Assembly (NCBI GenBank): GCA_945271295.1
Contig: CALYPG010000022.1
Span: 1 to 46,747, forward strand
DNA length: 46,747 nt
Direction: 5' to 3'
Source of the DNA: an uncultured Gilliamella sp.
GTDB lineage: Bacteria; Pseudomonadota; Gammaproteobacteria; Enterobacterales; Orbaceae
Shown here piece by piece: positions 867 through 14,386 of this stretch; within the stretch, counting starts at the first letter, position 1; each line of letters starts with the position of its first letter. Both the position numbers and the translations under genes were made by a program. Below the pieces are notes generated by a model. It saw only the letters and a list, made by a program, of their open reading frames with translations, was not told the DNA's origin and ran no database searches.

Positions 867-1220
867 ATGAGAGAGATTAAAGAGATTTTAAATGCCTGGA
901 AAAATACCCGTGTGCTTACACGGATCGGAACTGAATATCCCTCAAAATCATCAGGTTTTGAAGGTGCCCCGCGCGATATAGATCATCGCCAATATTTAAC
1001 TGAAACTGAAGCCGAAGAGGTAGATAATGCGGTTTTGAGTTTAAAAGAAGCCAACTATTCACATTGGGTTGTTTTAACTGCTTATTATTTAAGGGGGATA
1101 TCGTGTAATGCCCAAGCAAAAGTTATAGGTAGGCGTCCTCATGATATTATTAATTTATTAAATGAAGCGGAATGCTTTATAAAAGGGTATATTTTTGAGT
1201 TTTTCAAAAAAGCATCATGA
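867..1220 (+). CDS. Q: Q-like late antitermination protein
   Basis: This 117-residue protein resembles the phage antitermination Q family (Phage_antitermQ type). It starts with IKEILNAWKNT, has a central acidic stretch, then a helix-rich C-terminus ending LNEAECFIKGYIFEFFKK. A Q protein binds next to the late promoter, loads onto paused RNA polymerase and lets it read through terminators. The sequence directly downstream fits exactly: a consensus promoter at 1248-1276 and a terminator at 1311-1338. The start ATG at 867 follows GATGAG. Further terminators inside the tail operon (1455, 3606, 5609) would also require such read-through. Confidence 0.75.
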   Translation: MREIKEILNAWKNTRVLTRIGTEYPSKSSGFEGAPRDIDHRQYLTETEAEEVDNAVLSLKEANYSHWVVLTAYYLRGISCNAQAKVIGRRPHDIINLLNEAECFIKGYIFEFFKKAS

Positions 1221-1247
1221 TATTTTAATTTTTATGATTAAAGGGGG

Positions 1248-1276
1248 TTGACTTTGCGCAAATGCGCATGTATAAT
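1248..1276 (+). promoter_or_regulatory. late promoter (PR'-like) with putative Q-binding repeats
   Basis: TTGACT (1248-1253), exactly 17 bases, then TATAAT (1271-1276) form one of the best promoters in the window. The spacer contains two copies of TGCGCA separated by two bases, the kind of repeated element that some Q proteins bind between -35 and -10. It starts 27 bases after the Q stop codon and reads toward the holin and tail genes. Confidence 0.75.
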
Positions 1277-1310
1277 TACCCCATAATGTATTTTTATATA
1301 TGCGAAATTC

Positions 1311-1338
1311 AAGCCCAATTACCTAGTTGGGCTTTTTT
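1311..1338 (+). terminator. early terminator of the late transcript (tR'-like)
   Basis: AAGCCCAA pairs with TTGGGCTT and is followed by a T-run. It lies about 55 bases after the predicted late start, reproducing the promoter/terminator arrangement on which lambda Q acts. Without antitermination, late RNA would be a short leader only. Confidence 0.8.
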
Positions 1339-1454
1339 ATTTCTCCTAATTTTCTCATTTCGTCTAAATGCCAGCTTTCAGGTTAAAATTGACTGTAAAT
1401 GTAATGACAATTAGGTAGCATAAAATCAACGCTTATTAACAGTATTTTTAAATT

Positions 1455-1478
1455 AAACCGCTTAATTGCGGTTTTTTT
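1455..1478 (+). terminator. second terminator upstream of holin
   Basis: AAACCGC pairs with GCGGTTT across a six-base loop, followed by seven T residues. The region 1339-1612 otherwise has no supported gene. This is a second barrier between the late promoter and the holin. Confidence 0.75.
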
Positions 1479-1612
1479 ATATCCAAAATTTGCCTGAACA
1501 CCAATATTGGGTTGTTTCGTTTTTCGGGGTGGCAGAACAATCATAGATAATAATTTAACCTAAAAGCTGCTTAACCCTTTCTTATTTCAATAGCCTCAAA
1601 CGGAGGCACATT

Positions 1613-1939
1613 ATGAAGATTAAACGTATGCCGATAAAAGACCCTGATAATGTCAACTGGCTCGTTGTCATTTATTTATTCATCATCACTTCACTTGGTT
1701 CGTTGGCTAGCTACTGTTATCACATTTTGAACGGTGACCAATTCCGAATAGGAACGTTGATAGCGCAAATATTTATTTCCACATTTGCTGGTGCTTTAGT
1801 GGTGCTTGCCGCCAGTTATTTTAATTGGGCTTTTGAGTTGGCCGGTGGTATTGCCGGCTTGGCGGGTTGGTCTGGTGCCACATTGATTAAAGCATTGGAA
1901 GAACGATTAATAAAAAAAGCCAAAGGGGATGAACAGTGA
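1613..1939 (+). CDS. phage holin (LydA/holin superfamily III-like)
   Basis: This 108-residue protein has three hydrophobic segments at about residues 15-35, 48-68 and 73-93, a charged N-terminus (KIKRMPIKDPDNVNW) and a basic tail (LEERLIKKAKGDEQ). This layout is typical of phage holins, which make inner-membrane lesions that release endolysin or collapse the membrane. GGAGG precedes the ATG (AACGGAGGCACATTATG). The stop overlaps the start of the endolysin stub by four bases, so the two were translationally coupled. The gene is intact although its partner is truncated. The exact holin family is inferred from the pattern. Confidence 0.75.
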   Translation: MKIKRMPIKDPDNVNWLVVIYLFIITSLGSLASYCYHILNGDQFRIGTLIAQIFISTFAGALVVLAASYFNWAFELAGGIAGLAGWSGATLIKALEERLIKKAKGDEQ

Positions 1940-2091
1940 AGCTTACCGAACATTTTACATTAGAAGAATTTACCCATTCAACTACCGCAAGTCGATTGAA
2001 AATTAATAATTGCGTACCTACTGATTTAATGTCCAATATTCAACTTGGCTATTCGAGGATTAATAAAATTATTAGTAAGTTAGCATTGTAA
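1936..2091 (+). pseudogene. truncated M15-type endolysin (D-Ala-D-Ala peptidase) N-terminus
   Basis: A GTG start overlapping the holin stop gives MKLTEHFTLEEFTHSTTASR, the usual beginning of M15_3 phage peptidases. A normal protein of about 120-150 residues would carry the zinc-binding His and Asp residues later. Here the resemblance fades after about residue 35 and the frame stops after 51 codons. No catalytic motif follows in any frame. The truncation coincides with the loss of all Rz-like, terminase and head genes, so it is probably the left breakpoint of one large deletion. Confidence 0.75.
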
Positions 2092-2307
2092 AATTGACTA
2101 ATACTAATAAGTTAAGTCATAACTAATACTAGAAACGCTTGTTAAGTATTTTCTATCTAATTTAGAGTTTACTCTCAATGAAATTTAACTCTAATCCAAT
2201 CATAAGTGCTTATCTAACTGTTTTAGATCAAATCACTTACCTAGTACCAAACAGTCTAATTACTGGGCTGATTCATTAATTTAATTATAAATAGGAGATT
2301 TTATACT
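2092..2307 (+). other. non-coding deletion scar between lysis and tail genes
   Basis: The segment is AT-rich with no supported gene. It contains an inverted repeat TTAGAGTT / AACTCTAA in the 2160-2195 region. In a complete phage roughly 10 kb of Rz, terminase, portal and capsid genes would lie here. Confidence 0.6.
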
Positions 2308-2979
2308 ATGAGTTTTGCATTACCTAATGGTGCACGTGTTTATGTACAAAAAGCGAAGGACATTACCTATAATTTTGAAACTATATCAAATGCAAAAGAA
2401 GCCGTAATTGTACTTAAAACTGGACATGGAATAGTAGTGGGTGATGAAGTTATTATTACTTCATCATGGAGTAAATTAAATAATGTTGTTGCTAAAATTG
2501 TTCGTGTTAATAATACTGAAGTTACATTAGGTAGTATTAATACTACTAATACCAATATATTTCCAGCGGGTGAAGGTAAAGGTACAATAACAAAAATCAC
2601 AGAATGGGAGCAAATTCCACAAATAAAAGAAGTATCTTCAGAAGGTGGTGAACAACAGTTTGTTCAAATACAGTTTCTTGATGACAATGTAGAAAGACAA
2701 CTGCCTACGATTAAATCAGCTAAAAGCAAAAATTATATCATTGCTCATGATAGTTCGTTGGCGATTTATGCTTTATTACAAGAGTTAGACCAAACTAACG
2801 ATATTGTAGCAATGAAAATGTATGTGCCAAAAGCTAAAGAAACTCGCTACGATTCAGTTCGCATTTCTTTTGATCCGACCCCTGAAACTGCTGTTAATGA
2901 TATTGAAACAGTTAAAATTAGTGCAACAGTTGAATCACCTGCAATTACATTCTATAAAAGTAAAGAAACTGAAAATTAA
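2308..2979 (+). CDS. phage tail tube protein (lambda gpV-like)
   Basis: This 223-residue protein resembles the Phage_tail_3-type major tail proteins of siphoviruses. It shows an N-terminal PNGARVYVQKAKD, a central hydrophobic GHGIVVGDEVIITSSWSKLN segment, then GEQQFVQIQFLDDNVERQLP and a C-terminal beta-rich part. These proteins stack as hexameric rings to form the flexible tail tube through which DNA (or, in a tailocin, ions) passes. AGGAG lies upstream (AATAGGAGATTTTATACT), and the tail chaperone gene follows after 11 bases. Length is normal for the family and the frame is intact. Confidence 0.85.
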   Translation: MSFALPNGARVYVQKAKDITYNFETISNAKEAVIVLKTGHGIVVGDEVIITSSWSKLNNVVAKIVRVNNTEVTLGSINTTNTNIFPAGEGKGTITKITEWEQIPQIKEVSSEGGEQQFVQIQFLDDNVERQLPTIKSAKSKNYIIAHDSSLAIYALLQELDQTNDIVAMKMYVPKAKETRYDSVRISFDPTPETAVNDIETVKISATVESPAITFYKSKETEN

Positions 2980-2990
2980 GGAAATTAATA

Positions 2991-3302
2991 ATGGCCAAAT
3001 TCAAATTAGTTGCAGAGCCAACATTTAAAAGTAAAGTTTTGATTCCTCGTCCTGGGCAAGAAAATGGCCAAATCGAATTTACTTTTAAGCATTATAAACT
3101 AAGTGATATTGCTAAATTTGAGGAAGAGTTGAAAGATAAGTCTGTAGCTGAATTTTTAATGAAAATTCTAACTGGTTGGGATTTAGAGGAAGAATTTAAT
3201 CAAAATAATTTGGAGATTATGTTAGATAACTATCCTGCAACGGTTCAAGCAATTTCAGATACCTATTACAAAGAGATATTTGGACAACGCGAAAAAAACT
3301 AA
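2991..3302 (+). CDS. G: tail assembly chaperone (gpG-like)
   Basis: This 103-residue acidic protein (Phage_TAC type) has the pattern TFKSKVLIPRPGQ then FTFKHYKLSDIAKFEEEL. It is the short form of the chaperone pair that coats the tape measure and recruits tail tube subunits. The final codons GAA AAA AAC TAA contain the heptamer A AAA AAC at 3293-3299. A -1 slip there yields the longer GT product. The ATG follows a GGAA-type site (AAGGAAATTAATA). Synteny, directly after the tail tube and before the tape measure, is exactly that of lambda. Confidence 0.85.
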   Translation: MAKFKLVAEPTFKSKVLIPRPGQENGQIEFTFKHYKLSDIAKFEEELKDKSVAEFLMKILTGWDLEEEFNQNNLEIMLDNYPATVQAISDTYYKEIFGQREKN

Positions 3303-3607
3303 TCAAACTCGTCACTGCACTTTATACTTCTGAACCATCCAAAGAGGAATTAGCCGCATTTGGGTTAACTGAGCTTGATTATGAAGATGAGTATATTGAG
3401 ATATGGCAAGATAATCTTGATTCGTTTAGATTGTTTAGTGCCATGTCTACGCAGTGGCGAGCGACTGTGGGTGGAATTACGGGTCTTGATTATAATTGTT
3501 TACCTTGGGTAATGAAAATGCAACATATCAAGGAAAGCGATAATATTTTCAATGATATTCAGATTATGGAAAGTGAAGCCTTAAGAATAATATATAAATC
3601 AAAATAA
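2991..3607 (+). CDS. GT: tail assembly chaperone GT fusion via programmed -1 frameshift
   Basis: The frame after the -1 slip runs from 3299 to the stop at 3605-3607 and adds about 102 residues. It starts LIKLVTALYTSEPSKEEL and continues AAFGLTELDYEDEYIEIW, ending with a segment containing FRLFSAMSTQWR and GLDYNCLPWVMK. This resembles the DUF1799 T-domain that follows G in siphoviruses and lets GT contact the tail tube. The extension has no start codon or binding site of its own, so it can only be made by frameshifting. The extension frame is open with no interruption, which suggests the mechanism is still selected. Confidence 0.85.
3293..3299 (+). promoter_or_regulatory. slippery heptamer for -1 frameshift
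   Basis: A AAA AAC in the G frame fits X XXY YYZ, one codon before the zero-frame stop at 3300-3302. Tandem AAA and AAC tRNAs can re-pair one base back. Confidence 0.85.
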
Positions 3608-3627
3608 CCGACGTAAGTCGGTTTTTT
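3606..3627 (+). terminator. intrinsic terminator after GT
   Basis: AACCGAC pairs with GTCGGTT over a four-base loop, followed by a T-run. It overlaps the GT stop codon. In intact lambdoid phages the tape measure gene follows directly, so this terminator inside the tail operon is unusual. Confidence 0.75.
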
Positions 3628-3930
3628 GTGTTTTATATATATATGATTATTTATTAAATAGTAATTTATCAAATAATGACTTAATTAAAAAAATAATTAA
3701 TAAAGCCGTTTTTAAAACTTAAAGCGTATCTATTTATAAGTTAAGAAGTTCTATCCTTATTAAATAACATTCAATAGCTAGACTCACTTATGACGTGAAA
3801 AACATAATTATTTATTGTAAGACAATTAATTATTAAATTTTACCAATTATCCATAAAAAAATAAGTAGCTAATTATATTTTACAAATTTATAACTCGCAC
3901 CTTATGTTTTTATGATTTATAGGAAAATAT
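3628..3930 (+). other. 303-bp AT-rich non-coding gap inside the tail operon
   Basis: There is no supported gene on either strand. It separates GT from the tape measure, which are normally contiguous. It could be a deletion or insertion scar, or it could carry a promoter for the distal tail genes. I saw no clear -35/-10 pair and no terminal inverted repeats of an insertion sequence. Confidence 0.5.
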
Positions 3931-5202
3931 ATGCAAGAAGATATCTCATCATTATCCATTCAAGTGAACACAAAAAATATCAATGATGCCACAAAGACTT
4001 TAGATAATTACAGAAAAAAAGCAATAGATACGACAAAGGCAAATAATAGTGTTACAAACTCTTTAGCGCAGGTTACTAATAAGTTTACAAAAATGGCAAC
4101 AAAAGTGAATGGAACTCATCAAATTGTTAACAAATATAATACTTCCATGAAACAAAATCAGCAAGTTCAGTCTGATATCAATGATCCAAAAACAACTGTT
4201 GAGAAATTTCTCGAAAACCTTCAAGTATACATTGATAGATTTAAAACTGATAATTCTGTTAACGGAGCGTCATTGCAAAATGACAAAAGGAAAGCACAAT
4301 TATTAAAACTTGAACAAGATGAAGAAAATGAAAAAAAGGGTGTTCATGATCCATCGGCAATTGCTGATATTATAAAAAAGTATACGGCAATCAAACAACA
4401 ATTACAGCAAAGTTGGGAAGAAGAGGAAAAAAAACAGGGTAGCTGGTTTGGTTGGTTGACAGCGAGCATTGAAGACTATCTTAATAAAGCTCAAGATTTT
4501 TCAAGTATGACAAAAGATTTGGCAAAAAACACAATGGGGCAATTAACCAGTATGGTATTAACATTTGTTAATACAGGTAAATTAAATTTTAAGGATTTTG
4601 CAAAATCAATTATTGCAAATATCATCGAAATATCACAAAAACTGTTAATTTTTCAAGCTTTTCGCTCTATATTTAAGTGGATGACTGGGGGTGGGGCTGG
4701 TGCCTCAACGGGAGGGCTGCAAACAGTTTATACCGGCGGTTATGTTCGAGGTTTTGCCTTAGGTGGTATTGTTGGTTATAACGATAAACCAGGTGGTTTT
4801 ACTGGACCAGGCAATAAATATCAACCCGCGGGAATAGTTCATAAAGGTGAGTTTGTGTTTACTAAAGAAGCAACAAAACGAATAGGTGTAAACAATCTTT
4901 ATGCATTAATGAGAGAAGCTAACAAAGAATATGCAAGTGGTGGCTACGTTGATCTTGGCCAACCATCCACTATTGGGCTGACTCGACAACATAATAATTC
5001 ATCAAGTGGTTTAAATATTACAGCGAACGTCACGGTAAATATGCCTTTAGAGAATGATTCATCTGTAAGTACAGATAATAGTATTGATCCTCAAGCAGCG
5101 ACAAGTCAAATTAAGGCGATCATTCAAGAAGAGATCAGTGAAACCTTTAGAAAATCGGTTTCGCCTGGTGGGAATTTGTATAATGTTATTCACGCACGAT
5201 AA
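3931..5202 (+). CDS. tail tape measure protein, internally shortened
   Basis: This 423-residue protein carries both ends of a lambda-family tape measure. The N-terminus ISSLSIQVNTKNINDATKTL is the usual start. The C-terminal part has the WFGWL region (about 170), a hydrophobic helix near 215-245, the glycine-rich hinge MTGGGAGASTGG (about 251) and the conserved QPAGIVHKGEFVFTKEATKR (about 297). The middle, usually several hundred residues of coiled coil and hydrophobic segments, is largely missing. Tape measure length sets tail length, so a particle would have a short tail. The open frame shows the deletion was in-frame. AGGAAAATAT precedes the ATG. Confidence 0.8.
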   Translation: MQEDISSLSIQVNTKNINDATKTLDNYRKKAIDTTKANNSVTNSLAQVTNKFTKMATKVNGTHQIVNKYNTSMKQNQQVQSDINDPKTTVEKFLENLQVYIDRFKTDNSVNGASLQNDKRKAQLLKLEQDEENEKKGVHDPSAIADIIKKYTAIKQQLQQSWEEEEKKQGSWFGWLTASIEDYLNKAQDFSSMTKDLAKNTMGQLTSMVLTFVNTGKLNFKDFAKSIIANIIEISQKLLIFQAFRSIFKWMTGGGAGASTGGLQTVYTGGYVRGFALGGIVGYNDKPGGFTGPGNKYQPAGIVHKGEFVFTKEATKRIGVNNLYALMREANKEYASGGYVDLGQPSTIGLTRQHNNSSSGLNITANVTVNMPLENDSSVSTDNSIDPQAATSQIKAIIQEEISETFRKSVSPGGNLYNVIHAR

Positions 5203-5246
5203 AGTAGGATAATACGGCTTAGTCAAGGTAAAGTTTTGGGGAAAAT

Positions 5247-5588
5247 ATGACAATAGATAGATTTATGTGGAAAACAATGGGTACACCAAAAGGTACTGAT
5301 ACATCAAATATTAATGAGGTGAGTTTCGGTGATGGTTATACTCAATTATCAAGTAATGGAATCAATAATGCTAGTGAATCATGGGAATTAACTTATACCG
5401 GTCGTGATGAGGAGATAAAGGAAGTGAGGACTTTTTTAAATTCACATATTATCAAATCATTTAAATGGATAAATCCATATGGTGAGGAAAAATTATATCG
5501 GGTGGTTAATAAATCCATTGAATCAGAATTTGTTGCAGGTAAAATTGTTTCACTTTCATTCAAGTTTATCCAATCTTATGCGCCATAA
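5247..5588 (+). CDS. M: minor tail protein M
   Basis: This 113-residue protein matches the Phage_min_tail family, with EVSFGDGYTQLSSNGINNAS near residue 25 and a FKWINPYGEEKLYRV segment. M joins the tail tip between the tape measure and L. GGGGAAAAT precedes the ATG. The gene is full length and sits in its usual place, 44 bases after the tape measure. A terminator follows before L. Confidence 0.85.
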   Translation: MTIDRFMWKTMGTPKGTDTSNINEVSFGDGYTQLSSNGINNASESWELTYTGRDEEIKEVRTFLNSHIIKSFKWINPYGEEKLYRVVNKSIESEFVAGKIVSLSFKFIQSYAP

Positions 5589-5608
5589 ATAATTAAAATA
5601 TATTCACT

Positions 5609-5631
5609 AAACCACCTTTGGGTGGTTTTTT
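5609..5631 (+). terminator. intrinsic terminator between M and L
   Basis: AAACCACC pairs with GGTGGTTT over a TTTG loop, followed by T residues. This is a second terminator inside the tail operon, which should reduce distal expression unless polymerase is antiterminated. Confidence 0.8.
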
Positions 5632-5649
5632 CATTTATGGAGAAAATAA

Positions 5650-6384
5650 ATGTCAATTACACAAGACCTACAGACACTTGAAGGTAATCAATTAATACAA
5701 CTTATAGAAGTTGATGGAACAAAGTTTGGACTTGATGAAGTGTTGAGATTTCATGCTCACAATATTTCTGTAGAAGGATGGGCGTCATTTGCCGCTGAGA
5801 ACTTACCATCTATTAAATGGCAGGGCAAAGAATATCTACCATATCCTTACGAAATCAAGAATATAGAACTTAGTAGTACAGGCGCCCAACCAATACCAAA
5901 ATTATCGGTCGGGAATATTGATAATAGAGTTACCCGGCTTTGTATCGATTATGATGACTTAGTACAAGCTAAAGTTAAAATTCATACCACTATGGCAAAA
6001 TATCTTGATGCTGTTAACTGGAAAGATGGCAATCCACAAGCTGATCCCACTCAAGAACGAGTCCAATTATTTTTTATCAATAATAAATCGTTAGAAAATA
6101 AAACTACAGTTGAATTTGAATTATGTTCACCGTTCGATATTCAAAATCTACAATTACCCACAAGACAAATAACAACAGTTTGTACATGGTGTATGCGTGG
6201 TTGGTATCGAAGTGGTACCGGTTGTGATTATGCAGGTAACAAATATTTTACTAAAGATGGCTTAGCAACTAATGACCCATCAAAAGACGAATGTGGCGGG
6301 CTTTTAAAAGATTGTAAAGCCAGACATGGTAATAATCCACTTCCGTTTGGTGGTTTTCCTGCAGCGAATCTTCAAGGTAAATAA
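5650..6384 (+). CDS. L: minor tail protein L with Fe-S-type cysteines
   Basis: This 244-residue protein matches the lambda gpL family. The N-terminal domain (about 1-175) includes NLPSIKWQGKEYLPYPYEIK. The C-terminal domain keeps a cysteine cluster: TTVCTWC near 177-180, GTGC near 189, then DEC and KDC about 215-222. Lambda gpL is known to bind an iron-sulfur cluster through its C-terminal cysteines, and the same pattern here suggests the same. TATGGAG precedes the start region. The gene overlaps nothing and is followed after one base by K. Confidence 0.85.
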   Translation: MSITQDLQTLEGNQLIQLIEVDGTKFGLDEVLRFHAHNISVEGWASFAAENLPSIKWQGKEYLPYPYEIKNIELSSTGAQPIPKLSVGNIDNRVTRLCIDYDDLVQAKVKIHTTMAKYLDAVNWKDGNPQADPTQERVQLFFINNKSLENKTTVEFELCSPFDIQNLQLPTRQITTVCTWCMRGWYRSGTGCDYAGNKYFTKDGLATNDPSKDECGGLLKDCKARHGNNPLPFGGFPAANLQGK

Positions 6385-6385
6385 T

Positions 6386-7108
6386 ATGCGACAAAAATTA
6401 TTAGATTTAATTAAACAACACGTTGAACGTGAATACCCTAATGAAGCGTGTGGTTTGATTGTTGATACAGGCAAAATCCAAAAATACATACCATGTAACA
6501 ATATATCAGATAAACCAACCGAACATTTTGAAATATCCCCTGAAGAGCAACTTGAAGCAGAAAAACAAGGGGAAATAATCATGATTATTCACTCTCATCC
6601 AGATGTACCAAAGCTAGTACCTTCTGAATTTGATCGTATCCAATGTGACCATTCTGGCATTGAATGGGGAATTATGTCGTATCCTGATGGTGACTTTTGC
6701 ACCATTTCACCAAGAATAAACCGAGACTACACTGGGCGCCAATGGTTACTTGGTCATGCTGATTGTTGGTCTTTGATTAGGGATTACCATAAGCGCGAGT
6801 ATGGCATTAAGTTAAATAATTACTCTGTTGATCGAGAATGGTGGGAAAGTGGTAAAGAAAACCTATATGACGATAATTGGCAAACTGAGGGATTTATAGA
6901 GGTAAATCTTGAGGATATAAAAGCAGGTGACATCATTATGATGCGTATTAATGCTTCAGTTACCAATCATGCAGCTATTTATATTGGTGATAATCTTATT
7001 CTACATCATTTATATGGTCAATTATCTTCACGTATACCTTACGGCAAATATTTCCGAGATAGAACAGTACGTATTGTTAGGCATAAGGAGTTATTCAATG
7101 TTATGTAA
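6386..7108 (+). CDS. K: tail assembly protein K (JAB/MPN plus NlpC/P60)
   Basis: This 240-residue protein has two enzyme domains. The first (1-110) is a JAMM metalloprotease-like fold with HSHP near residue 68, SEFD after it, and NEACGLIV near the start. The second is NlpC/P60, with the catalytic-type Cys in GHADCWSLIRDY (about residue 126) and His in TNHAAIYIGD. Lambda K is required for tail tip assembly. I chose the ATG at 6386, two bases after the L stop, because a longer upstream frame would overlap L. The 3' end overlaps I by 11 bases. Confidence 0.85.
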   Translation: MRQKLLDLIKQHVEREYPNEACGLIVDTGKIQKYIPCNNISDKPTEHFEISPEEQLEAEKQGEIIMIIHSHPDVPKLVPSEFDRIQCDHSGIEWGIMSYPDGDFCTISPRINRDYTGRQWLLGHADCWSLIRDYHKREYGIKLNNYSVDREWWESGKENLYDDNWQTEGFIEVNLEDIKAGDIIMMRINASVTNHAAIYIGDNLILHHLYGQLSSRIPYGKYFRDRTVRIVRHKELFNVM

Positions 7109-7712
7109 TTTAACACTTAAAGGCGCAATGGCTAAACAGTTCGGTAAAAAACATCAATATAATGTTCAAAATTTCAAAGAATTACTCCGAGCATTATGTG
7201 CAACAGTAAAAGGTTTTGAAAAATATATGAATTCTGCACATCTAAAGGGAATTAAATTTGCTTTTTTTGTTGATGGTAAAAATATTGGTATTGATGAATT
7301 TGATATTAACGTTAATGGTAAAAACTATATGATTATGCCAGTAACGCAAGGTGCAAAAAGTGGTGGTTTTTTACAAGTCATTATTGGTGCAGTAGCTTTG
7401 GTGGCAGCATTTTTCACAGCTGGTATGTCACTGGTTTCATGGGGAGCCGCAATGACTGCTAGTACAATTTCGGCAACATCAATTTTAACAGGTATGGGTA
7501 TTAGTATGATGTTAGGTGGCGTTGTTCAATTGCTTACTCCCCAACCTAAATTTAATGCGGGTACTTCATCTAGCACAGAAAATAAACCTAATTATGGATT
7601 TGGTGGGCCAGTTAATACTAATGCAGTCGGTTATCCGGTTCCAATTTTATTGGGTGAGCGCGAAATAGGTGGTGCGGTGATTAACGCCGGTATTTATTCA
7701 CAAGATCAATAA
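7098..7712 (+). CDS. I: tail assembly protein I
   Basis: This 204-residue protein matches the lambda tail assembly I family. It has an N-terminal beta-grasp-like half, a strongly hydrophobic glycine/alanine stretch around residues 93-145 and a C-terminal GFGGPVNTNAVGYPVPILLG, a family signature. AAGGAG at 7085-7090 precedes the ATG at 7098. The start lies inside K (11-base overlap), so translation is probably coupled. The protein is probably an assembly factor that is not retained in the mature tail, by analogy with lambda. Confidence 0.85.
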   Translation: MLCNLTLKGAMAKQFGKKHQYNVQNFKELLRALCATVKGFEKYMNSAHLKGIKFAFFVDGKNIGIDEFDINVNGKNYMIMPVTQGAKSGGFLQVIIGAVALVAAFFTAGMSLVSWGAAMTASTISATSILTGMGISMMLGGVVQLLTPQPKFNAGTSSSTENKPNYGFGGPVNTNAVGYPVPILLGEREIGGAVINAGIYSQDQ

Positions 7713-7722
7713 CAGGTGAAAT

Positions 7723-10700
7723 ATGCAACTAATACAAGGTCAAAAAGGTGGCAGTAAGAAACCACATACACCATATGAGCAGCCTGATAACTTACTTTCT
7801 ACAGCAAAACTCAAAGTACTTTTGGCATTAAGTGAAGGTGAAATTCAAGGCGATTTAACAGCACAAAATATTTTTATTGATGGTACTCCGTTAGCTAATC
7901 AAGATGGTTCTTATAATTTTACAGGGGTTAAGTGGGAGTTTCGTAATGGTTCACAACCTCAAGATTATATTCAAGGTATTCCTGAAATTAGTAACGAGCT
8001 AAGGGCTGGGTTTACAATCAAAACCGACAAACCATGGGTTCGTTCATTTTCTAATTTAGATCTTGACGCAATAAGAATTAAACTGAGTTTACCTACCCAT
8101 GTGCAATATAAAGATAATGGAGATACAGTTGGTACTGTAACTCAATATGCCATTGATCTATCAACTGATGGAAGTGCATTTGAAACCGTAGTAAATGGAA
8201 AGTTCAATGGTAAAACGACGTCAGAATATCAACGTGATCATCGAATCAATTTACCGGATGCAGTAGAAGGTTGGACGATACGTATTAGAAGAATAACACC
8301 TGATTCTAAGTCAAGTAAGTTAATTAATGCTTTTGGTGTATCTTCATATGCAGAAGTAATAGATAGCAAAATGCGATATCCTAATACAGCATTACTGTAT
8401 TTAGAATTAGATGCAAGTCAGTTTAATGGTTCGGTACCTAAAATCAGTTGTTTGTTAAAAGGCAAAGTTATTCCTGTTCCTGATAATTATGACCCGATAA
8501 GCCGAACCTATTCAGGTATTTGGACCGGCGGTTTCAAAATGGCCTATACGAACAATCCTGCTTGGATAGCTTATTATCTTATGCGTGATGAAATAGCAGG
8601 TATGGGGCTAAGAATTGGTACTACAATGTTAGACAAATGGTCAATCTATCAATTAGGCCAATATTGTGATCAAATGGTATCTGATGGGCAAGGTGGTAAG
8701 GAGCCAAGATTTGCTTGTAATGAATATATACAAAATCAGGAAGACGCTTACACAGTACTTAAAGATCTAGTTGCTTCTTTCCGTGGTATTATTTTTTGGG
8801 GTAACGATCAAATATGTTTAACAGCAGATATGCCGCAAGATGAGCCGGATTTTATCTATCATCCGTCAAATGTAATTGGTGATTTTGCTTATTCTGGAGG
8901 TTCTTATAAAAATCGCTATACCTCTTGCTTAGTTGCTTATTCAGACCCTAATAACCACTATAATGATGATGTTGAAGCTGTTTGGGATCATGACTTAATG
9001 CGTCGATATGATGTTAATGTCATGAAATTAACGGCAATTGGTTGCACATCTCAGGCCGAAGCTCATAGGCGTGGGCGTTGGGCTTTGCTTTCAAATGCAA
9101 AAGATGGAGCTGTTACATTTACCGTTGGTTTAGATGGTTATATCCCTTTGCCTGCCAGGATTATTGGTATCGCCGATCCGTCTTTTTCCGGTAAGGAAAA
9201 CGGAGGGCGCATTCATGAAGTAGTTGGGCGAAAAATAACGCTAGACAGGGCCGTAGATTATCAAGCAGGTGATCGTCTAATTATCAATTTGCCAGATGGC
9301 ACCGCACAAAGTAGAACAATAAAATCCATTAGTGCAGATAAAAAAACGATTACTGTTACAGCTAATTACAAAGTTGAACCTGTCGTTGGAGCAGTTTGGT
9401 GTATTGATAGTGATAATATTGCCATTCAATATTATAGAGTAACATCGATATCAGCAAATGGTAATGGGCAATTCACAATAACAGCTATTCAACACGATCC
9501 AGATAAGTTCAAATATATCGATGATGGTGTAAGGATAGAGCCTAAGCCAATAACTATCACGCCTCCTAGCTCAGTTACCGTCCCGAAAAATATTGTGATT
9601 ACTGAAAATAGTTATGTGTCTCAAGGATTATCAGTAGCATCGTTAAATGCAACTTGGGATGCTGTTGATGGTGCGACTAATTATGTTGCACAATGGCGAA
9701 AAGATAATTCATCTTGGATTAATGTTGGTTTCACAAATGGAACAAATTTTTCAGTAGATGGTATTTATTCAGGTGTTTATGATGTTCGTGTGCGTGCAAT
9801 CAATGCAGTTGAAACTTCGTCGCCGTGGGGTTATTCTGAATCAACCTATATCAAAGGTAAGGTAGGCAAACCCGACAAACCTGTTGGATTTACAGCGAGT
9901 GACAACGTTGTATTTGGCATCGATTTAAGTTGGTCATTCCCAGTTGGTAGTGGTGACACCAGTCATACTGAGATTCAATATTCAACTAATGAAAATGAAG
10001 AAAATGCATTGCCATTAACTAACGTTACTTATCCAAGTTGCAACTATTCACAAACAGGTCTAACCATTGGTCAGGTATTTTTCTACCGCGCTCGCTTAGT
10101 CGATAAAATCGGTAATGTCAGTGATTGGACTGGGTGGGTAAGGGGTATATCTAGTACCAATACTAATGATCTAACCGATCATATTTTTGAGGAAATAAAA
10201 CAGACTGATGCTTGGAACTCACTTGTTGATTCGATTGATAACACTACTATTAGTTCAATTGAGAATGCTAAATCAATTATTGAAAATGCGTTAGCAATTG
10301 ATAGCGAAACAAAGCAACGCAGAATTGAAAACGGCAACTTATCAGCAGAGATTAAAGAAACAAATGCTGTTTTATTAACTGAAAAAGAAGCGACAGCAAT
10401 TGCACTAAAAGAGCTTAATTCCAAATATGGTGATGTAAGTAGTAATTTATCAGAGTTAAAGCAAACGACTGCAGAACAAAATGCCGCAATGGCGCAATCT
10501 ATCCAAACAATCGGCACTAAAGTTGGTGAAGTATCAACCTCAATTTCAGATGTTAGTAAGACTGTAAATAATCTCGACGGGAAAGTCTCCGCGCATCGCA
10601 CCATGAAAGTTGAAGTTGATGATAAAGACCAACAATATGTTGCTGGCATGACAATGGGGGTTGAAAATTCTGATAAAGGTATGCAATCAAACGTCATCTT

Positions 10701-11442
10701 CTTGCAAGACCGATTCTCAATAATGAATGGTGCAGGAGGGAAACCCAATGTTATTTTTACAACTAATGGTGATCAGGTCATTATCAAAGATACGGCTATT
10801 GGAAATGGATCTATTACTAACGCTAAAATTGGTAATATCATTCAATCAGATAATTTTAAGGAAGGTGTCTCCGGTTGGCAGTTATCAAAAAATGAAGGAA
10901 AACTGAAAGCTGTAAATGCTGATATTTCAGGAAAATTGAAAGCCACATCAGGTGAACTAAACAATGTTGTAATTAACGACACTTGTAAAATTAATAAATT
11001 GAAAGTAGATCAAATTGAGGGTGACGTTCTGAAATGTGTTTATCTCAATGCTAATCAATCTATTACAGTACCCCCAACGGATTATGATAGAAACATTTTC
11101 TTACATCAGATATTTATTACAACCTATGGTTATAATGGGGAATGTTTGATTAAAATTAATAACATTGATGTTGTGAAATTATATGTTAAGGGATATTCAT
11201 ATCATCCAAAAACTAGTAAAGATAGTGACGCTTATCATAATTATTTTATAGGTATAGATCAGGGAAGTTTTAGTCATTTTATTCCAAAATGGCAATCATT
11301 AAAAATTGAATATCTAATAAATAATCTAACTTTCAAAAAAAATACAAATGGAAACAAAGTTGCAGCAATAGGATTTCATAGACCAGAATGTTGCTTTTTT
11401 ACATATCCAAAAACGTTATGTTTATTAGTAACTAAAAATTAA
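7723..11442 (+). CDS. J: central tail fibre / host specificity protein J
   Basis: This 1239-residue protein is the tail tip hub. The N-terminal 600 residues form the conserved hub part (SKKPHTPYEQPDNLLSTAKL at the start, WTGGFKMAYTNNPAWIAYYL near 265). Two fibronectin type III-like domains follow at about 610-805, then a coiled coil (about 840-940) and a DUF1983-like segment around HRTMKVEVDD (about 957). The last 200 residues form a tip with no recognisable family and are the likely receptor-binding part. AGGTGA precedes the ATG. Length is near that of lambda J (about 1130). Confidence 0.9.
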   Translation: MQLIQGQKGGSKKPHTPYEQPDNLLSTAKLKVLLALSEGEIQGDLTAQNIFIDGTPLANQDGSYNFTGVKWEFRNGSQPQDYIQGIPEISNELRAGFTIKTDKPWVRSFSNLDLDAIRIKLSLPTHVQYKDNGDTVGTVTQYAIDLSTDGSAFETVVNGKFNGKTTSEYQRDHRINLPDAVEGWTIRIRRITPDSKSSKLINAFGVSSYAEVIDSKMRYPNTALLYLELDASQFNGSVPKISCLLKGKVIPVPDNYDPISRTYSGIWTGGFKMAYTNNPAWIAYYLMRDEIAGMGLRIGTTMLDKWSIYQLGQYCDQMVSDGQGGKEPRFACNEYIQNQEDAYTVLKDLVASFRGIIFWGNDQICLTADMPQDEPDFIYHPSNVIGDFAYSGGSYKNRYTSCLVAYSDPNNHYNDDVEAVWDHDLMRRYDVNVMKLTAIGCTSQAEAHRRGRWALLSNAKDGAVTFTVGLDGYIPLPARIIGIADPSFSGKENGGRIHEVVGRKITLDRAVDYQAGDRLIINLPDGTAQSRTIKSISADKKTITVTANYKVEPVVGAVWCIDSDNIAIQYYRVTSISANGNGQFTITAIQHDPDKFKYIDDGVRIEPKPITITPPSSVTVPKNIVITENSYVSQGLSVASLNATWDAVDGATNYVAQWRKDNSSWINVGFTNGTNFSVDGIYSGVYDVRVRAINAVETSSPWGYSESTYIKGKVGKPDKPVGFTASDNVVFGIDLSWSFPVGSGDTSHTEIQYSTNENEENALPLTNVTYPSCNYSQTGLTIGQVFFYRARLVDKIGNVSDWTGWVRGISSTNTNDLTDHIFEEIKQTDAWNSLVDSIDNTTISSIENAKSIIENALAIDSETKQRRIENGNLSAEIKETNAVLLTEKEATAIALKELNSKYGDVSSNLSELKQTTAEQNAAMAQSIQTIGTKVGEVSTSISDVSKTVNNLDGKVSAHRTMKVEVDDKDQQYVAGMTMGVENSDKGMQSNVIFLQDRFSIMNGAGGKPNVIFTTNGDQVIIKDTAIGNGSITNAKIGNIIQSDNFKEGVSGWQLSKNEGKLKAVNADISGKLKATSGELNNVVINDTCKINKLKVDQIEGDVLKCVYLNANQSITVPPTDYDRNIFLHQIFITTYGYNGECLIKINNIDVVKLYVKGYSYHPKTSKDSDAYHNYFIGIDQGSFSHFIPKWQSLKIEYLINNLTFKKNTNGNKVAAIGFHRPECCFFTYPKTLCLLVTKN

Positions 11443-11502
11443 TTGATATTCTAAAAAATACTTTTGTAGCGGTTTTTTCACGTTCAAATTTTGAGGAAAC
11501 AT

Positions 11503-12825
11503 ATGTCTTGGTATAAAGAAGGCTCTGTTAATATAGAGCAAGGCAGTAAAACAGTAATAGGAAATGATACTAAGTGGACAAACCCTTTAATTGGGGTTTG
11601 CGCTGGTCAAATGCTGATATTAAAAACAGCAGAAACAATTGAAATTTATGAAATTGCATCGATTCAGTCTGATACACAATTAACTTTAGCAAATAAATAC
11701 AATGGAGTGACTAAAGCTGGCGTTAGTTACGAAATTCCGACTGCTCCTAAAGTTTCAATTGAAGCTTTAGCGTTGCGACTATCTGAAATGCTTAATTATT
11801 ATCAAAAACAGATGGATGGGTGGCAGTCAATATTAACAGGAGAGGGGGAGGTAACTCTAACTGCTCCAGATGGTAGAGTTGTTACGATAAAATCGCAATA
11901 TTCAATTGCAAATGAATTAATAGAATATGTTAAAGCAAGCGAAAAATTGGCAGAAAGTTCAACGAAAAGCGCAGAATTAGCTAATCAATCTGCAACTAGT
12001 GCAAATAGCGCCAGTTCTTCAGCGAAAAACAGCGAAAGTAGTGCCAAAATAAGTGCTGAAACCGCATCAAAATCCGCACAAGCAGCTAGTCAATCTGCTA
12101 AAGAAGCAAGTAATAGTGCTGCGTTAGCTAAAATATCAGAAATAAATAGCAAAACATCAGAAGCTAACGCTGCACAATCAGCAATAGACGCTAAAAATGC
12201 CAAAGAATCCATTGATACATCAAATTTCATACAAAAAAGTGGAAAAGAAAATCAGTCAATTTCAGGTTCATTAAATATTAACGAATTAACAGAAAATGGT
12301 GAAAGAGTTTATTCACCGAATAATAAGCCTAGTGCTGATGATATCGGGGCTTTAGCTGCTACTAAAACGATGGTAAATAATGTACCTATTTACATGATAG
12401 GTGATCAAATTAATTTTGAAAAAACACCGAAAGTAAATGGAAAATCGGTCATTACAGATATCTCAGAGATTCAATCTAAATTAACGGAGCTGAATAACAG
12501 AGCCTATATTACTGAATCATATCAAAATGGCGACAGCTGGTACCAACGTTTTTCGAACGGTTTTATCATGCAGGGTGGAACACGAAAAATTGGCGATGTC
12601 GGAGCATTATCTGGTGGTGGCGTAACATTTAATATGATAACACCATTTTCAACCACATTTTGGACGCCTCAACTAGAGCAGATATCAATAAATCAGGGGT
12701 GGAATTATTTAACAAATTGTATACCACAAATTTATAACGATAGATTTGTTTTGTATATTTATAACAATCACCCATCATTAGTTGCACTTCAGCCAGTATT
12801 TAGATGGTTAGCTTGCGGTTATTAG
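11503..12825 (+). CDS. side tail fibre, expressed allele of a switchable pair
   Basis: This 440-residue fibre begins SWYKEGSVNIEQGSKTVIG, a common fibre attachment domain. A serine/alanine-rich coiled region with Phage_fiber_2-type repeats spans about 147-245. A short linker follows, then a C-terminal tip ending WLACGY. I chose ATG at 11503 because GAGGAA lies just upstream. The recombination-like repeat at 12384-12402 encodes residues 295-300 (PIYMIG). Everything after residue 300 would be replaced if the downstream segment inverted. The current tip is about 140 residues. Receptor choice probably depends on this tip together with J. Confidence 0.85.
   Translation: MSWYKEGSVNIEQGSKTVIGNDTKWTNPLIGVCAGQMLILKTAETIEIYEIASIQSDTQLTLANKYNGVTKAGVSYEIPTAPKVSIEALALRLSEMLNYYQKQMDGWQSILTGEGEVTLTAPDGRVVTIKSQYSIANELIEYVKASEKLAESSTKSAELANQSATSANSASSSAKNSESSAKISAETASKSAQAASQSAKEASNSAALAKISEINSKTSEANAAQSAIDAKNAKESIDTSNFIQKSGKENQSISGSLNINELTENGERVYSPNNKPSADDIGALAATKTMVNNVPIYMIGDQINFEKTPKVNGKSVITDISEIQSKLTELNNRAYITESYQNGDSWYQRFSNGFIMQGGTRKIGDVGALSGGGVTFNMITPFSTTFWTPQLEQISINQGWNYLTNCIPQIYNDRFVLYIYNNHPSLVALQPVFRWLACGY
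12384..12402 (+). repeat. inner 19-bp inverted repeat of the fibre switch
   Basis: ACCTATTTACATGATAGGT lies inside the expressed fibre gene and matches 18 of 19 bases of the repeat at 14231-14249 in the opposite orientation. It has dyad arms ACCTAT and ATAGGT around a seven-base centre, as a recombinase site would. It encodes PIYMIG in frame. Confidence 0.7.
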
Positions 12826-12838
12826 AGGAGATAAGATT

Positions 12839-13171
12839 ATGACATATACGAACGAAGAATACGCAGAAATGGCTATTAAAGCGAATGAAGAAGGCAAAAC
12901 TTTAAAAGAGGTAAAAGGAAAGCTAAAGCTGGTTGAACCCGACTCTATTCATTTGTCTGACGAACAAATTGTCTCGCAAAATCAAGTTATAAAGAATTCA
13001 CTAATTAATGAAGCCAATGAAAAAATATCGTTATTTAAAGATGTTATCGATTTAGACATGCAGGAATCAAACGAAGAGGAGCAACTCAAGCAGTGGAAAA
13101 AATATAGAATTATTCTTACTCGTATTGATGTATCAGACATTAATGTTATATTCCCCAAAAAGCCCGTTTAG
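12839..13171 (+). CDS. tail fibre assembly chaperone (Tfa-like), expressed allele
   Basis: This 110-residue protein has a charged helical N-terminus and a C-terminal Caudo_TAP-like region (LKQWKKYRIILTRIDVSDIN). It closely parallels the C-terminus of the opposite-strand chaperone (LLKKWKFYRIQLKSIDTNKL). GAGGAGAT precedes the ATG, 13 bases after the fibre. Such chaperones fold or trimerise a specific fibre tip, so each tip travels with its own chaperone. It is shorter than its partner (175 residues), lacking the usual N-terminal region. Confidence 0.75.
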   Translation: MTYTNEEYAEMAIKANEEGKTLKEVKGKLKLVEPDSIHLSDEQIVSQNQVIKNSLINEANEKISLFKDVIDLDMQESNEEEQLKQWKKYRIILTRIDVSDINVIFPKKPV

Positions 13172-13177
13172 GGCTTC
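13157..13177. terminator. terminator shared by convergent fibre-chaperone genes
   Basis: AAGCCC pairs with GGGCTT over a short loop, with A residues on the left that give a U-run on the minus strand. The hairpin contains or touches both convergent stop codons. Confidence 0.6.
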
Positions 13178-13695
13178 TCTGGTAATTCAATATCTAATTT
13201 ATTTGTATCAATAGATTTTAGCTGTATACGATAAAATTTCCATTTTTTCAGTAGTTTTTTATCATCATCTGTTGCTATTTCAAGCTCTATTTTGTCATTC
13301 AAAATATCTATCTCATTGTTAGCATCAGATAGCAAATTTGCAATATTTAATTGTTGTTGTTTGATAATAAAGGTACTTTTCTGCTCATCATCAACCACCC
13401 ATTTTTCACCATTCCATTTACAAAATTCGAATGGCTCAAGTAACGTAAATCCTGCTTTAAGTTCACCAAGGTAGTCAATTTTAACGGCGTCTTTTGTTTC
13501 TATATTAAAGGCTGTTTTTTCGCGGTTATCCTCGACTAAAACCCATTTACCATCTTGCTCACACGGACAAAATCCATCTTTAAATTCAGGAGCAATCCGT
13601 AACGCATTGTCAGGTGGCATTGTGTCGTCGTTAGCCTCTAATTGATGTGTGTACGGTTTTAGTTCATCTGTATTATCAAAATAATAATTAATCAT
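13168..13695 (-). CDS. tail fibre assembly protein (Tfa), silent allele
   Basis: This 175-residue protein has the typical Tfa layout. It has an N-terminal MINYYFDNTDELKPYTHQ, a middle region with DGFCPCEQDGKWVLVEDN and WNGEKWVVDDEQ, and a C-terminal Caudo_TAP helix with KKWKFYRIQL. I chose ATG at 13695 over an upstream TTG because GGAG lies six bases ahead of it. It is convergent with the other chaperone and their ends overlap by four bases. It follows the silent fibre tip by one base. No promoter for this orientation is visible, so it is probably expressed only after inversion. Confidence 0.85.
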   Translation of the reverse strand: MINYYFDNTDELKPYTHQLEANDDTMPPDNALRIAPEFKDGFCPCEQDGKWVLVEDNREKTAFNIETKDAVKIDYLGELKAGFTLLEPFEFCKWNGEKWVVDDEQKSTFIIKQQQLNIANLLSDANNEIDILNDKIELEIATDDDKKLLKKWKFYRIQLKSIDTNKLDIELPEKP

Positions 13696-13696
13696 A

Positions 13697-14239
13697 TCAA
13701 ACTCCAAGGTAAATTACAGGTGTCATACCAATGTTAAGTGGGCGATTTTCATTTGCTGTTGGTACTACATTTGATGCACGAAAATCGTAGCCGTATGCCG
13801 GCCATTCCTTTTTTGGTGCAAATGCACCATTTTCCGGATAGATTGCATTCGCACCTACAAACGCGCCGCGAGTATATAGACCGTGACAGTCAACGATGCC
13901 AGTGTCGAAATGCCCCCAAATTTCTCGAATGGCATCATCTTCCCAGCTACCTACTTGCCGAGTAGTTCCATTAACTGCTCGCTCAAAAAAACCACGCCCA
14001 TCTGGAGCAAATGCCGTTGGCACGTTAATATATTGTTGTCCATTTATAGTTTTAATCGTAATACGATGGTCGTTTTTATAATTGGCAGATAAACCATTTA
14101 AAACCTTGCCTTGCGGTGAACTTAATAAGTAATTATCGCCATTACGAAAATACCATCCAAACGGCAATTCATCACGTCGAAATGGCATTAAACGTTGGTC
14201 TCCAATGGTATCTTTGAATACTACATGGCTACCTATCAT
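13697..14239 (-). CDS. silent alternative fibre C-terminus (headless)
   Basis: These 180 residues correspond to the C-terminal domain of a phage tail fibre: RLMPFRRDELPFGWYFRNGD, then VLNGLSANYKNDH, INGQQYINVPTAFAPDGRG and a terminal NIGMTPVIYLGV. No attachment or coiled-coil domain precedes it; a stop codon lies three codons before the ATG (TAA CCT ACT TAC ATG). The start codon lies within the 19-bp repeat at 14231-14249. In frame, the repeat reads YMIG here and in the expressed fibre, so inversion would give one continuous fibre with this tip. It is complete as a cassette rather than a random pseudogene. Confidence 0.85.
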   Translation of the reverse strand: MIGSHVVFKDTIGDQRLMPFRRDELPFGWYFRNGDNYLLSSPQGKVLNGLSANYKNDHRITIKTINGQQYINVPTAFAPDGRGFFERAVNGTTRQVGSWEDDAIREIWGHFDTGIVDCHGLYTRGAFVGANAIYPENGAFAPKKEWPAYGYDFRASNVVPTANENRPLNIGMTPVIYLGV

Positions 14240-14249
14240 GTAAGTAGGT
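14231..14249 (-). repeat. outer 19-bp inverted repeat of the fibre switch
   Basis: On the minus strand this reads ACCTACTTACATGATAGGT, one base different from 12384-12402. The two copies face each other across about 1.83 kb containing both fibre tips and both chaperones. Confidence 0.7.
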
Positions 14250-14269: not shown

Positions 14270-14386
14270 TTAGCGTCCACGACTATCATTATAGCGGTCG
14301 GTCATAGCTTGGGATTTGTGACTTAATAGCATCATCATATCTATTTTTTTCGCTTTATGATAAACAACATAGTTCCTTCTATTTTC
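14270..14386 (-). pseudogene. C-terminal remnant of a tyrosine recombinase/integrase
   Basis: The open frame ends MMMLLSHKSQAMTDRYNDSR then GR and a stop. It resembles the end of lambda Int (LLGHKS...YRDDRG), with the active-site His (HKS) nine residues before the Tyr (RYNDSRG). Only 38 residues remain, and a stop lies directly upstream in frame. The rest of the catalytic domain is not found in 14387-15097. It lies 21 bases outside the fibre-switch repeat, so it could be the dead prophage integrase or the dead recombinase of the switch. Its position at the tail end of the prophage is unusual for a lambdoid integrase. Confidence 0.75.

What the first reader, a model, noticed from the sequence alone, without database searches (positions are those of the whole stretch)
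12384..14249. Invertible tail-fibre cassette with in-frame 19-bp inverted repeats
The expressed fibre and its chaperone face a headless fibre C-terminus with its own chaperone (fibre-Tfa / Tfa'-fibre' arrangement, as in the Mu G segment). The two copies of ACCTA[T/C]TTACATGATAGGT differ by one base, are inverted, and both read YMIG in the fibre frame. Recombination between them would join the constant 300-residue stalk to either tip without a frameshift. The repeat is not the usual gix/hix-type serine-invertase site, so the switch may use another recombinase.
Basis: partly seen in the sequence, partly recalled or inferred. Interest (0 to 1): 0.8.

Follow-up and report, generated by a model that had tools for sequence, protein, structure and literature searches.

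The report
Reversible tail-fibre tip switch, probably frozen
A phage-tail-like element in a bee-gut bacterium carries two alternative fibre tips between mirror-image DNA sites; relatives show the segment flipped and carry a lambda-integrase-like enzyme beside it, but in this copy that enzyme is reduced to a fragment, so the switch is probably stuck.

Summary
The repeats are real, have no other copy within 2 mismatches in the genome, and read P-x-Y-M-I-G in the same phase. The host is most likely Gilliamella. In five related loci an intact arm-less lambda-Int-type tyrosine recombinase ORF ends at or inside the outer repeat; the two repeats match 19/19 there (18/19 in the window). The site is 6-bp arms around a 7-bp spacer, identical within each locus but differing between some loci. 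The segment is inverted between G025 and wkB308, breakpoints at the site; in G014/G032 one tip-Tfa unit is in the opposite orientation. Contigs of two draft assemblies stop at the site or one base past it. In the window only about 29 of its codons are recognisable, and endolysin, spanin, tail terminator and half the tape measure are cut or not found: this copy is probably frozen, unless a paralogue on contig C23 acts in trans. Unexpectedly, tip A holds a second site with similar arms and another spacer; elsewhere it forms inverted pairs around tip C-termini, and two 99%-identical contigs carry opposite orientations. Parallels: Mu G segment, carotovoricin, Bifidobacterium Rin. New variant of a known kind.

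The parts
11491..12825 (+). Fibre gene in the expressed arrangement: constant stalk (to about 12383) joined at the site to tip B
   Evidence: ORF; PHROG tail-fibre matches; best stalk pieces 57-74% identical to relatives
12384..12402 (+). Inner tier-1 site ACCTAT-TTACATG-ATAGGT, reads PIYMIG
12839..13171 (+). Tfa B, putative chaperone of tip B
   Evidence: Caudo_TAP 1.3e-16
13168..13707 (-). Tfa A, putative chaperone of silent tip A (175 aa from the internal ATG)
   Evidence: Caudo_TAP 2.5e-21
13697..14239 (-). Silent, headless tip A
   Evidence: ORF; 56-82% identical to tips that follow stalks in relatives; weak match to a solved short tail fibre, E 2.5e-5
13949..13967 (-). Second-tier site AACTAC-TCGGCAA-GTAGGT inside tip A (reads TTRQVG); no partner copy in this window
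14231..14249 (-). Outer tier-1 site ACCTAC-TTACATG-ATAGGT, reads PTYMIG
14273..14359 (-). C-terminal remnant (about 29 aa) of the tyrosine recombinase that is intact next to the outer site in relatives
   Evidence: tblastn 65.5% over 29 aa, E 2e-8 to 4e-7 depending on the search
867..11442 (+). Upstream tail and lysis module: Q-like antiterminator, holin, major tail protein, shortened tape measure, then M, L, K, I and J homologues. Endolysin reduced to a 37-aa match; spanin and tail terminator not found by tblastn
   Evidence: PHROGs on Q, holin, major tail, tape measure; tblastn against the G025 element, whose genes are labelled; J by Pfam

Best explanation
The cassette is a two-way tail-fibre tip switch of the Mu G-segment layout, built for a lambda-Int-type tyrosine recombinase that lacks the arm-binding domain. 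The recombinase gene lies outside the segment and its ORF ends at the outer site. The enzyme would bind the 6-bp arms ACCTAY/RTAGGT, exchange strands within the identical 7-bp spacer, and so invert 1.3-2.0 kb, joining the constant stalk in frame to either of two tips, each with its own Tfa. Shown by sequence: site structure, enzyme adjacency, catalytic motifs, opposite orientations in related genomes. Inferred: that this enzyme does the work, where it cuts, and that the tips set target range. In the window the recombinase is a remnant and the tail element (probably a non-contractile, F-type tailocin) is decayed, so this copy is most likely frozen with tip B on.
For: G025 versus wkB308: flanks on the plus strand 96.7% and 98.7%, segment on the minus strand 85.7-92.9%, breakpoints at the site. 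G014 versus G032: flanks plus 89.6% and 90.7%, one tip-Tfa unit minus 97.4% over 984 bp. Of 18 recombinase-family loci reaching the C-terminus (window remnant included), 7 had an inverted pair of at least 18/19 (one, L092, duplicates G025b), 2 showed one copy before the contig ended, 9 had none. Site pairs 19/19 in 5 of 5 intact loci, 18/19 in the window; spacer identical within 6 of 6. The same stalk is followed by tip A or tip B. Contigs stop at the site or one base past it: wkB308 C41, own C23 and C42. Lambda Int residues 74-355 match query 16-293, E 1.6e-49. About 29 residues of recombinase in the window.
Against: No reads were available; no inversion was seen within one culture. The link between enzyme and sites rests on adjacency and co-variation. 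G016 (about 62% identical, intact ORF) has no tier-1 pair. In G014/G032 the other tip unit does not match apart from 245 bp at 72.7% on the plus strand, so replacement of a unit is not excluded there. In wkB308, C40 runs on through the site and overlaps C41 by 1166 bases, which a simple assembly break does not predict. Arm pairing does not separate stalks with a recombinase in view from those without (see full report). G000 keeps an intact paralogue on C23 that might act in trans, against 'frozen'; but the window contig is unbroken at both sites, unlike C23 and C42.
Confidence: 0.85

Rival explanations
1. The repeat is only a conserved protein motif (P-x-Y-x-x-G at the stalk-tip joint) shared by two duplicated fibre genes; opposite orders arose by ordinary rearrangement.
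For: The motif is kept in several stalks with no recombinase in view, and the pairing of the 6-bp arms is no worse there as a group (4 to 6 of 6) than in loci with one (4 to 6 of 6, from the sequences).
Against: Upstream of the outer copy is the recombinase end, not stalk; pairs are identical within loci while spacers differ between loci; breakpoints fall at the site between G025 and wkB308.
Confidence: 0.05
2. A serine invertase of the Gin/Hin kind acts in trans.
For: The own genome has two serine recombinases on contig C8.
Against: No Tfa match lies on C8 and I saw no fibre cassette among the ORFs around them (by eye, no family search). Five relatives searched have none, three of them (G025, wkB308, G011) with perfect pairs. 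The 19-bp site does not look like a 26-bp gix/hix site (recalled).
Confidence: 0.03
3. The enzyme is just the element's integrase, and the sites are attachment sites.
For: PHROGs label the matching families 'integrase'; its nearest solved relative is lambda Int.
Against: Copies flank the tip segment as inverted repeats, not the element as direct repeats; only two copies lie in the 80 kb read around the G025 element; the arm-binding domain is absent.
Confidence: 0.04
4. The window copy still switches because the intact paralogue on contig C23 works in trans on its sites.
For: The C23 enzyme is an intact ORF with the catalytic motifs; the arms of the two site classes agree apart from one base on C42.
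Against: The window contig is unbroken at both sites, whereas C23 and C42 stop at theirs. The spacers differ (TTACATG against TTATGAG); trans action is untested.
Confidence: 0.15

Closest known systems
Bifidobacterium prophage Rin shufflon (PMC6109161; abstract and passages seen)
   Same: Arm-less tyrosine recombinase next to the receptor-binding-protein gene; inversion swaps the C-terminus on a constant N-terminus; orientation differs between strains.
   Different: Rin has several Rv genes and 11-bp asymmetric rix repeats in siphophages of a Gram-positive host; here two tips each with Tfa, 19-bp sites with near-palindromic arms, in tail elements of a gammaproteobacterium.
Eggerthella lenta clade 1 prophage Rin-like locus (PMC8778435; passages seen)
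   Same: Tyrosine recombinase beside variable tip genes and short repeats.
   Different: 8-bp repeats and tandem Rv genes; no Tfa pair in the passages seen.
Phage Mu G segment with Gin; P1 Cin (recalled; also named in PMC6109161)
   Same: Constant fibre part, two tip-chaperone pairs in opposed orientation, recombinase gene next to the outer site (recalled).
   Different: Serine recombinase, 26-bp gix-type sites and an enhancer (recalled); here a tyrosine recombinase.
Carotovoricin Er and other tailocins with DNA inversion (cited in PMC13280938; passages seen)
   Same: Inversion in the fibre region of a phage-tail-like bacteriocin.
   Different: Linked DNA invertase gene (of the serine type, recalled) and contractile tail (recalled), or no linked invertase in Xenorhabdus; here a linked tyrosine recombinase, with contractile and non-contractile tails.
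R64 shufflon with Rci (recalled); an Rci-like recombinase gene in a prophage of P. fluorescens Pf-5 (PMC2647930; passages seen)
   Same: Tyrosine recombinase, 19-bp repeats with 7-bp core, swaps C-termini (recalled).
   Different: Pilus adhesin, several segments, asymmetric sfx arms (recalled). The Pf-5 passages describe no tip switch.

Membership tests
Mu G-segment-type fibre switch (arrangement) | Stalk-tip-Tfa facing Tfa'-tip' between inverted sites | tested here: met
Mu G-segment-type fibre switch (Gin/serine invertase family) | Serine recombinase linked to the segment | tested here: not met
   Linked enzyme in relatives is PF00589; PF00239 not found in the 5 relatives searched, 3 of them with perfect pairs; own genome's two are on C8
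Tyrosine-recombinase (Rin-like) fibre-tip inversion | Tyrosine recombinase gene adjacent to the outer site | tested here: met
   Met in 5 relative loci; in the window only a remnant
Tyrosine-recombinase (Rin-like) fibre-tip inversion | Arm-binding N-terminal domain absent | tested here: met
   Lambda Int aligned only from residue 74; 289-303 aa against 376 aa in L095, L096 and L098. Tested on relatives, not on the window remnant
Tyrosine-recombinase (Rin-like) fibre-tip inversion | Both orientations in nature | tested here: met
   G025/wkB308; one unit in G014/G032. Not shown for the window's own lineage
Tyrosine-recombinase (Rin-like) fibre-tip inversion | Inversion depends on this enzyme | not testable with these tools
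   Needs deletion or reporter assay
F-type tailocin | Non-contractile tail and lysis genes without head genes | tested here: inconclusive
   G025 element: 15 proteins scanned besides the switch genes; tail, tail terminator (labelled connector), lysis, Q, one moron label, one no match, no head label; 2 ORFs of 91 aa not scanned. The window contig starts inside the module, so its left end is unseen

The most novel reading that the evidence does not exclude
One family of arm-less lambda-Int-like recombinases runs a nested, two-level tip switch in Gilliamella tail elements. Sites share the arms (A[AC]CTAY...RTAGGT) but come in two spacer classes: TTAYRWG at the stalk-tip joint swaps whole tips with their chaperones; TCGRCAR inside tip A swaps only the tip's C-terminal part of about 80-90 residues. 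Because strand exchange needs equal spacers, the two levels stay independent, giving more than two tips from two nested inversions.
Probability: 0.35. Interest if true: 0.75.

Novelty: new variant of a known kind. Interest (0 to 1): 0.6.

Why it matters
Tip switching lets a clonal population make tails (or phages) of more than one specificity. Here a lambda-type integrase seems to have lost its arm-binding domain and become a local invertase, and the same kind of enzyme-site pair sits beside both contractile and non-contractile tails in a bee-gut symbiont. Sites whose spacer is equal within a locus but not between loci give a natural test of spacer matching in tyrosine recombination, and the second spacer class raises the possibility of natural orthogonal switches in one fibre gene. 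The window adds a probably frozen state, useful for asking when a switch is lost.

Tried and rejected
Phage records: blastn of the cassette found no match. Serine invertase: looked for and rejected as the linked enzyme. Integrase/att-site reading: rejected because copies do not flank the element. IMG/VR scan for the tier-1 site gave 20 stretches; 5 of 20 had stalk, tip, Tfa or recombinase matches at E 1e-4, 15 had none. Of the 5, L149 repeats G011 C70, L135 repeats L093, L131 and L140 repeat contigs already held as L025 and L027. The genus scan for tier 1 with up to 2 mismatches hit 7 of 35 genomes; its single matches in G003, G009, G027 and at G025:272817 were not followed, though stretches of G003 and G009 were fetched. 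Recombinase relatives without tier-1 sites: 9 of 18 loci (best in G008 C7 is 16/19, AT-rich); L094, G032 C1, G023 and G008 C7 were not followed. Distribution: 8 of 44 family genomes at E 1e-20 or better, all one genus; 6 of 394 order genomes, an even sample, at 1e-60, same genus. I looked for the missing segment of the C23/C42 element by its Tfa and found none beyond C22 and C42. As a control I asked whether arm pairing is looser in stalks with no recombinase in view; it does not separate the groups. The recombinase tree has weak inner support and two long branches; I draw nothing from it beyond lengths and the alignment. Of the 6 tier-2 stretches from IMG/VR, L152, L155 and L156 were not examined. 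I made no structure predictions.

Paper searches (9 used): 'tyrosine recombinase, tail fiber, inversion, tailocin' 0 papers; 'tail fiber, DNA inversion, tyrosine recombinase' 5; 'Gilliamella, tailocin' 0; 'phage, tyrosine, invertase, receptor binding protein, inverted repeats' 1, the Rin paper; 'tailocin, DNA invertase, tail fiber' 1; 'Gilliamella, prophage, tail fiber' 1, passages without any inversion; 'Gilliamella, DNA inversion' 1, seen as listing only; 'shufflon, tyrosine recombinase, prophage, tail' 8; 'Gilliamella, phage tail-like' 4, of which one passage was seen and was a reference entry. Passages of PMC5903667 speak of prophage tail-fibre inversions in general. The library lacks most subscription journals.
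Full report
WHAT IS THERE. The window is one contig (C22) of a 2.8-Mb genome. The fibre runs 11491-12825, tip B with Tfa B on the plus strand facing Tfa A and headless tip A on the minus strand. Both Tfa match Caudo_TAP.

THE ENZYME. In the complete genome G025 and in wkB308, the stop codon of a tyrosine recombinase (PF00589) abuts the outer copy of the same kind of site. In G011 the ORF ends one base before the site; in G025b and G014 it ends inside it. Eighteen recombinase-family loci reached the C-terminus (two further rows, G032 C148 and G008 C20, did not). Seven have an inverted pair of at least 18/19 within 6 kb: G025a, wkB308, G025b, its duplicate L092 (6876/6876 identical), G014, G011 and the window remnant. 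Two (L093, own contig C23) show one copy before the contig ends. Nine show none: G016, L094, G032 C1, L095-L098, G023, G008 C7. The Gilliamella-type proteins are 289-303 aa against 376 aa in L095, L096 and L098. The closest solved structure is lambda integrase, aligned only from its residue 74 on, so the arm-binding domain is missing. The motifs carrying R, K, H-x-x-R, H and Y (roles recalled) are present in the C23 copy.

THE SITE. Recounted, inner and outer copies match 19/19 in five intact loci (G025a, wkB308, G025b, G014, G011) and 18/19 in the window. The 7-bp spacer is the same inside each of the six loci; three spacers occur (TTACGTG in G025a and wkB308; TTATGAG in G025b, G014 and G011; TTACATG in the window). 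The one window mismatch is in an arm. Upstream of the site the sequences next to inner and outer copies do not match. This is what a tyrosine recombinase with strand exchange in the spacer needs (established knowledge), and a protein motif alone does not explain the outer copy, which follows a recombinase gene. A control against me: in stalks with no recombinase in view the arms pair 4 to 6 of 6 where the site is kept, and in loci with one also 4 to 6 (from the sequences), so arm pairing does not tell the groups apart.

INVERSION IN NATURE. Between G025 and wkB308, blastn aligns the recombinase flank on the plus strand (96.7%), the stalk flank on the plus strand (98.7%) and the segment on the minus strand (85.7% and 92.9%), with borders at the site. 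Between G014 and G032, flanks are plus (89.6%, 90.7%), and the tip-Tfa unit that is silent in G014 is the stalk-fused one in G032 (minus, 97.4% over 984 bp). The other unit of G032 does not match that of G014 beyond 245 bp at 72.7%, so this pair is weaker. In G032 the recombinase match stops after about 209-213 residues and no outer site was found, a second probably frozen case. Across 24 loci, several of them duplicates, the stalk is followed by tip A in some and tip B in others; where the site is kept, the tip match starts at or near the base after it. Assembly breaks point the same way: wkB308 contig C41 begins exactly at the tip-side edge of the site, though C40 runs on through the site and shares 1166/1166 bases with C41; in the window's own genome contig C23 ends, and C42 begins, one base beyond the site of a second element. 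By arithmetic a contig end falls within one base of a given point with chance about 1e-4 in a genome of 50 contigs. No reads were available, so mixed orientation is inferred.

THE WINDOW'S COPY. Beyond the outer site only 29 recombinase residues are recognisable (65.5%, 14273-14359 minus). Of 17 G025 proteins compared by tblastn at E 0.001, the endolysin matches over 37 residues, the tape measure over residues 519-864 of 866 (38.8%), and Q, spanin, tail terminator and the two genes between J and the fibre give no match (the window's own Q-like ORF matches the same PHROG). Holin, major tail protein, G, T, M, L, K, I and most of J (1067 of 1106 residues) match. The contig is unbroken at both sites. 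I conclude that it is a decaying element with tip B on. The intact C23 paralogue could act in trans; I cannot exclude it.

WHAT KIND OF ELEMENT. In G025 the element around the switch has Q, holin, endolysin, spanin and lambda-type tail genes; none of 15 scanned proteins had a head label, and 2 ORFs of 91 aa were not scanned. It looks like an F-type tailocin. The G025b element has a sheath, baseplate wedge and tape measure (6 proteins scanned, one with a best hit labelled head and packaging and a second hit to a baseplate protein), so the same kind of enzyme-site pair also sits beside a contractile tail. Killing activity is untested.

A SECOND LEVEL. Tip A contains AACTAC-TCGGCAA-GTAGGT at 13949-13967 (minus), reading TTRQVG, alone in the window. 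In G016 this class is an inverted pair spanning 568 bp with a silent second C-terminus between tip and Tfa. The genus search with up to 1 mismatch found it in 7 of 35 genomes, as an inverted pair in G015 and G016; IMG/VR gave 6 stretches, with pairs in L153 and L154. L153 equals G015 over 2685 bases, so there are three distinct pairs. L153 and L154 are 99.1% and 99.3% identical in the flanks on the plus strand and 99.6% over 537 bp on the minus strand: the segment is inverted. The arm base that differs (AACTAC, ACCTAC) stays with the flank while the sequence after the site changes place, which puts the crossover after position 2 and before about position 22. Against a shared enzyme: G015 has no relative of the recombinase at E 1e-20, only 12 other PF00589 stretches, no recombinase ORF was noticed in the 19 kb around its pair (by eye), and in G016 the repeat arms extend to 47 nt at 91%, so that ordinary homologous recombination is possible. 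For it: G016 has an intact family member 23 bp from Tfa A and no tier-1 pair. The loose arm pattern gave 2 strand matches, probably one place, in the other 32 kb of the window, so the single window copy is by itself weak.

KNOWN OR NEW. [quoted passage not shown] Fibre inversion in tailocins is in print (carotovoricin, and Xenorhabdus loci without a linked invertase; PMC13280938, passages). I found no paper on this in Gilliamella with the searches listed under Tried and rejected. The combination is a new variant of a known kind; the nested second site class is the most novel part and is not proven.

Noticed in passing
window 13949-13967; L113 17517-18084; L153 11269-11809; L154 1177-1716; L188 9116-9656: Second site class (TCGRCAR spacer) inside tip A; inverted pairs flank a silent tip C-terminus, and L153 and L154 carry opposite orientations at 99% identity.
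   Followed up: partly
L041 8462-13497 (G011 C117): wkB108 has two whole fibre-Tfa units in tandem with tier-1-like sites as direct, not inverted, copies; no recombinase ORF noticed beside them.
   Followed up: no
L094 5962-7127, also G032 C1, G023 C89, G008 C7: More distant recombinase relatives followed directly by similar downstream sequence (in L094 a small gene, YRVYVIKQRKGGSEI...) and no invertible site found; role unknown.
   Followed up: no
L088 end (G000 C23) and L126 start (G000 C42): A second element of the window's genome with an intact recombinase; both contigs stop one base past the site, and no Tfa of its segment was found in the assembly.
   Followed up: partly
L093 8084-8415 (same contig as L135): A silent tip C-terminus starting at a tier-2-like site, next to an inverted repeat at the contig end.
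   Followed up: partly
window 1936-2046 and 3931-5202: Endolysin remnant and a tape-measure gene matching only the C-terminal part of its relative: the tail element is decaying.
   Followed up: yes
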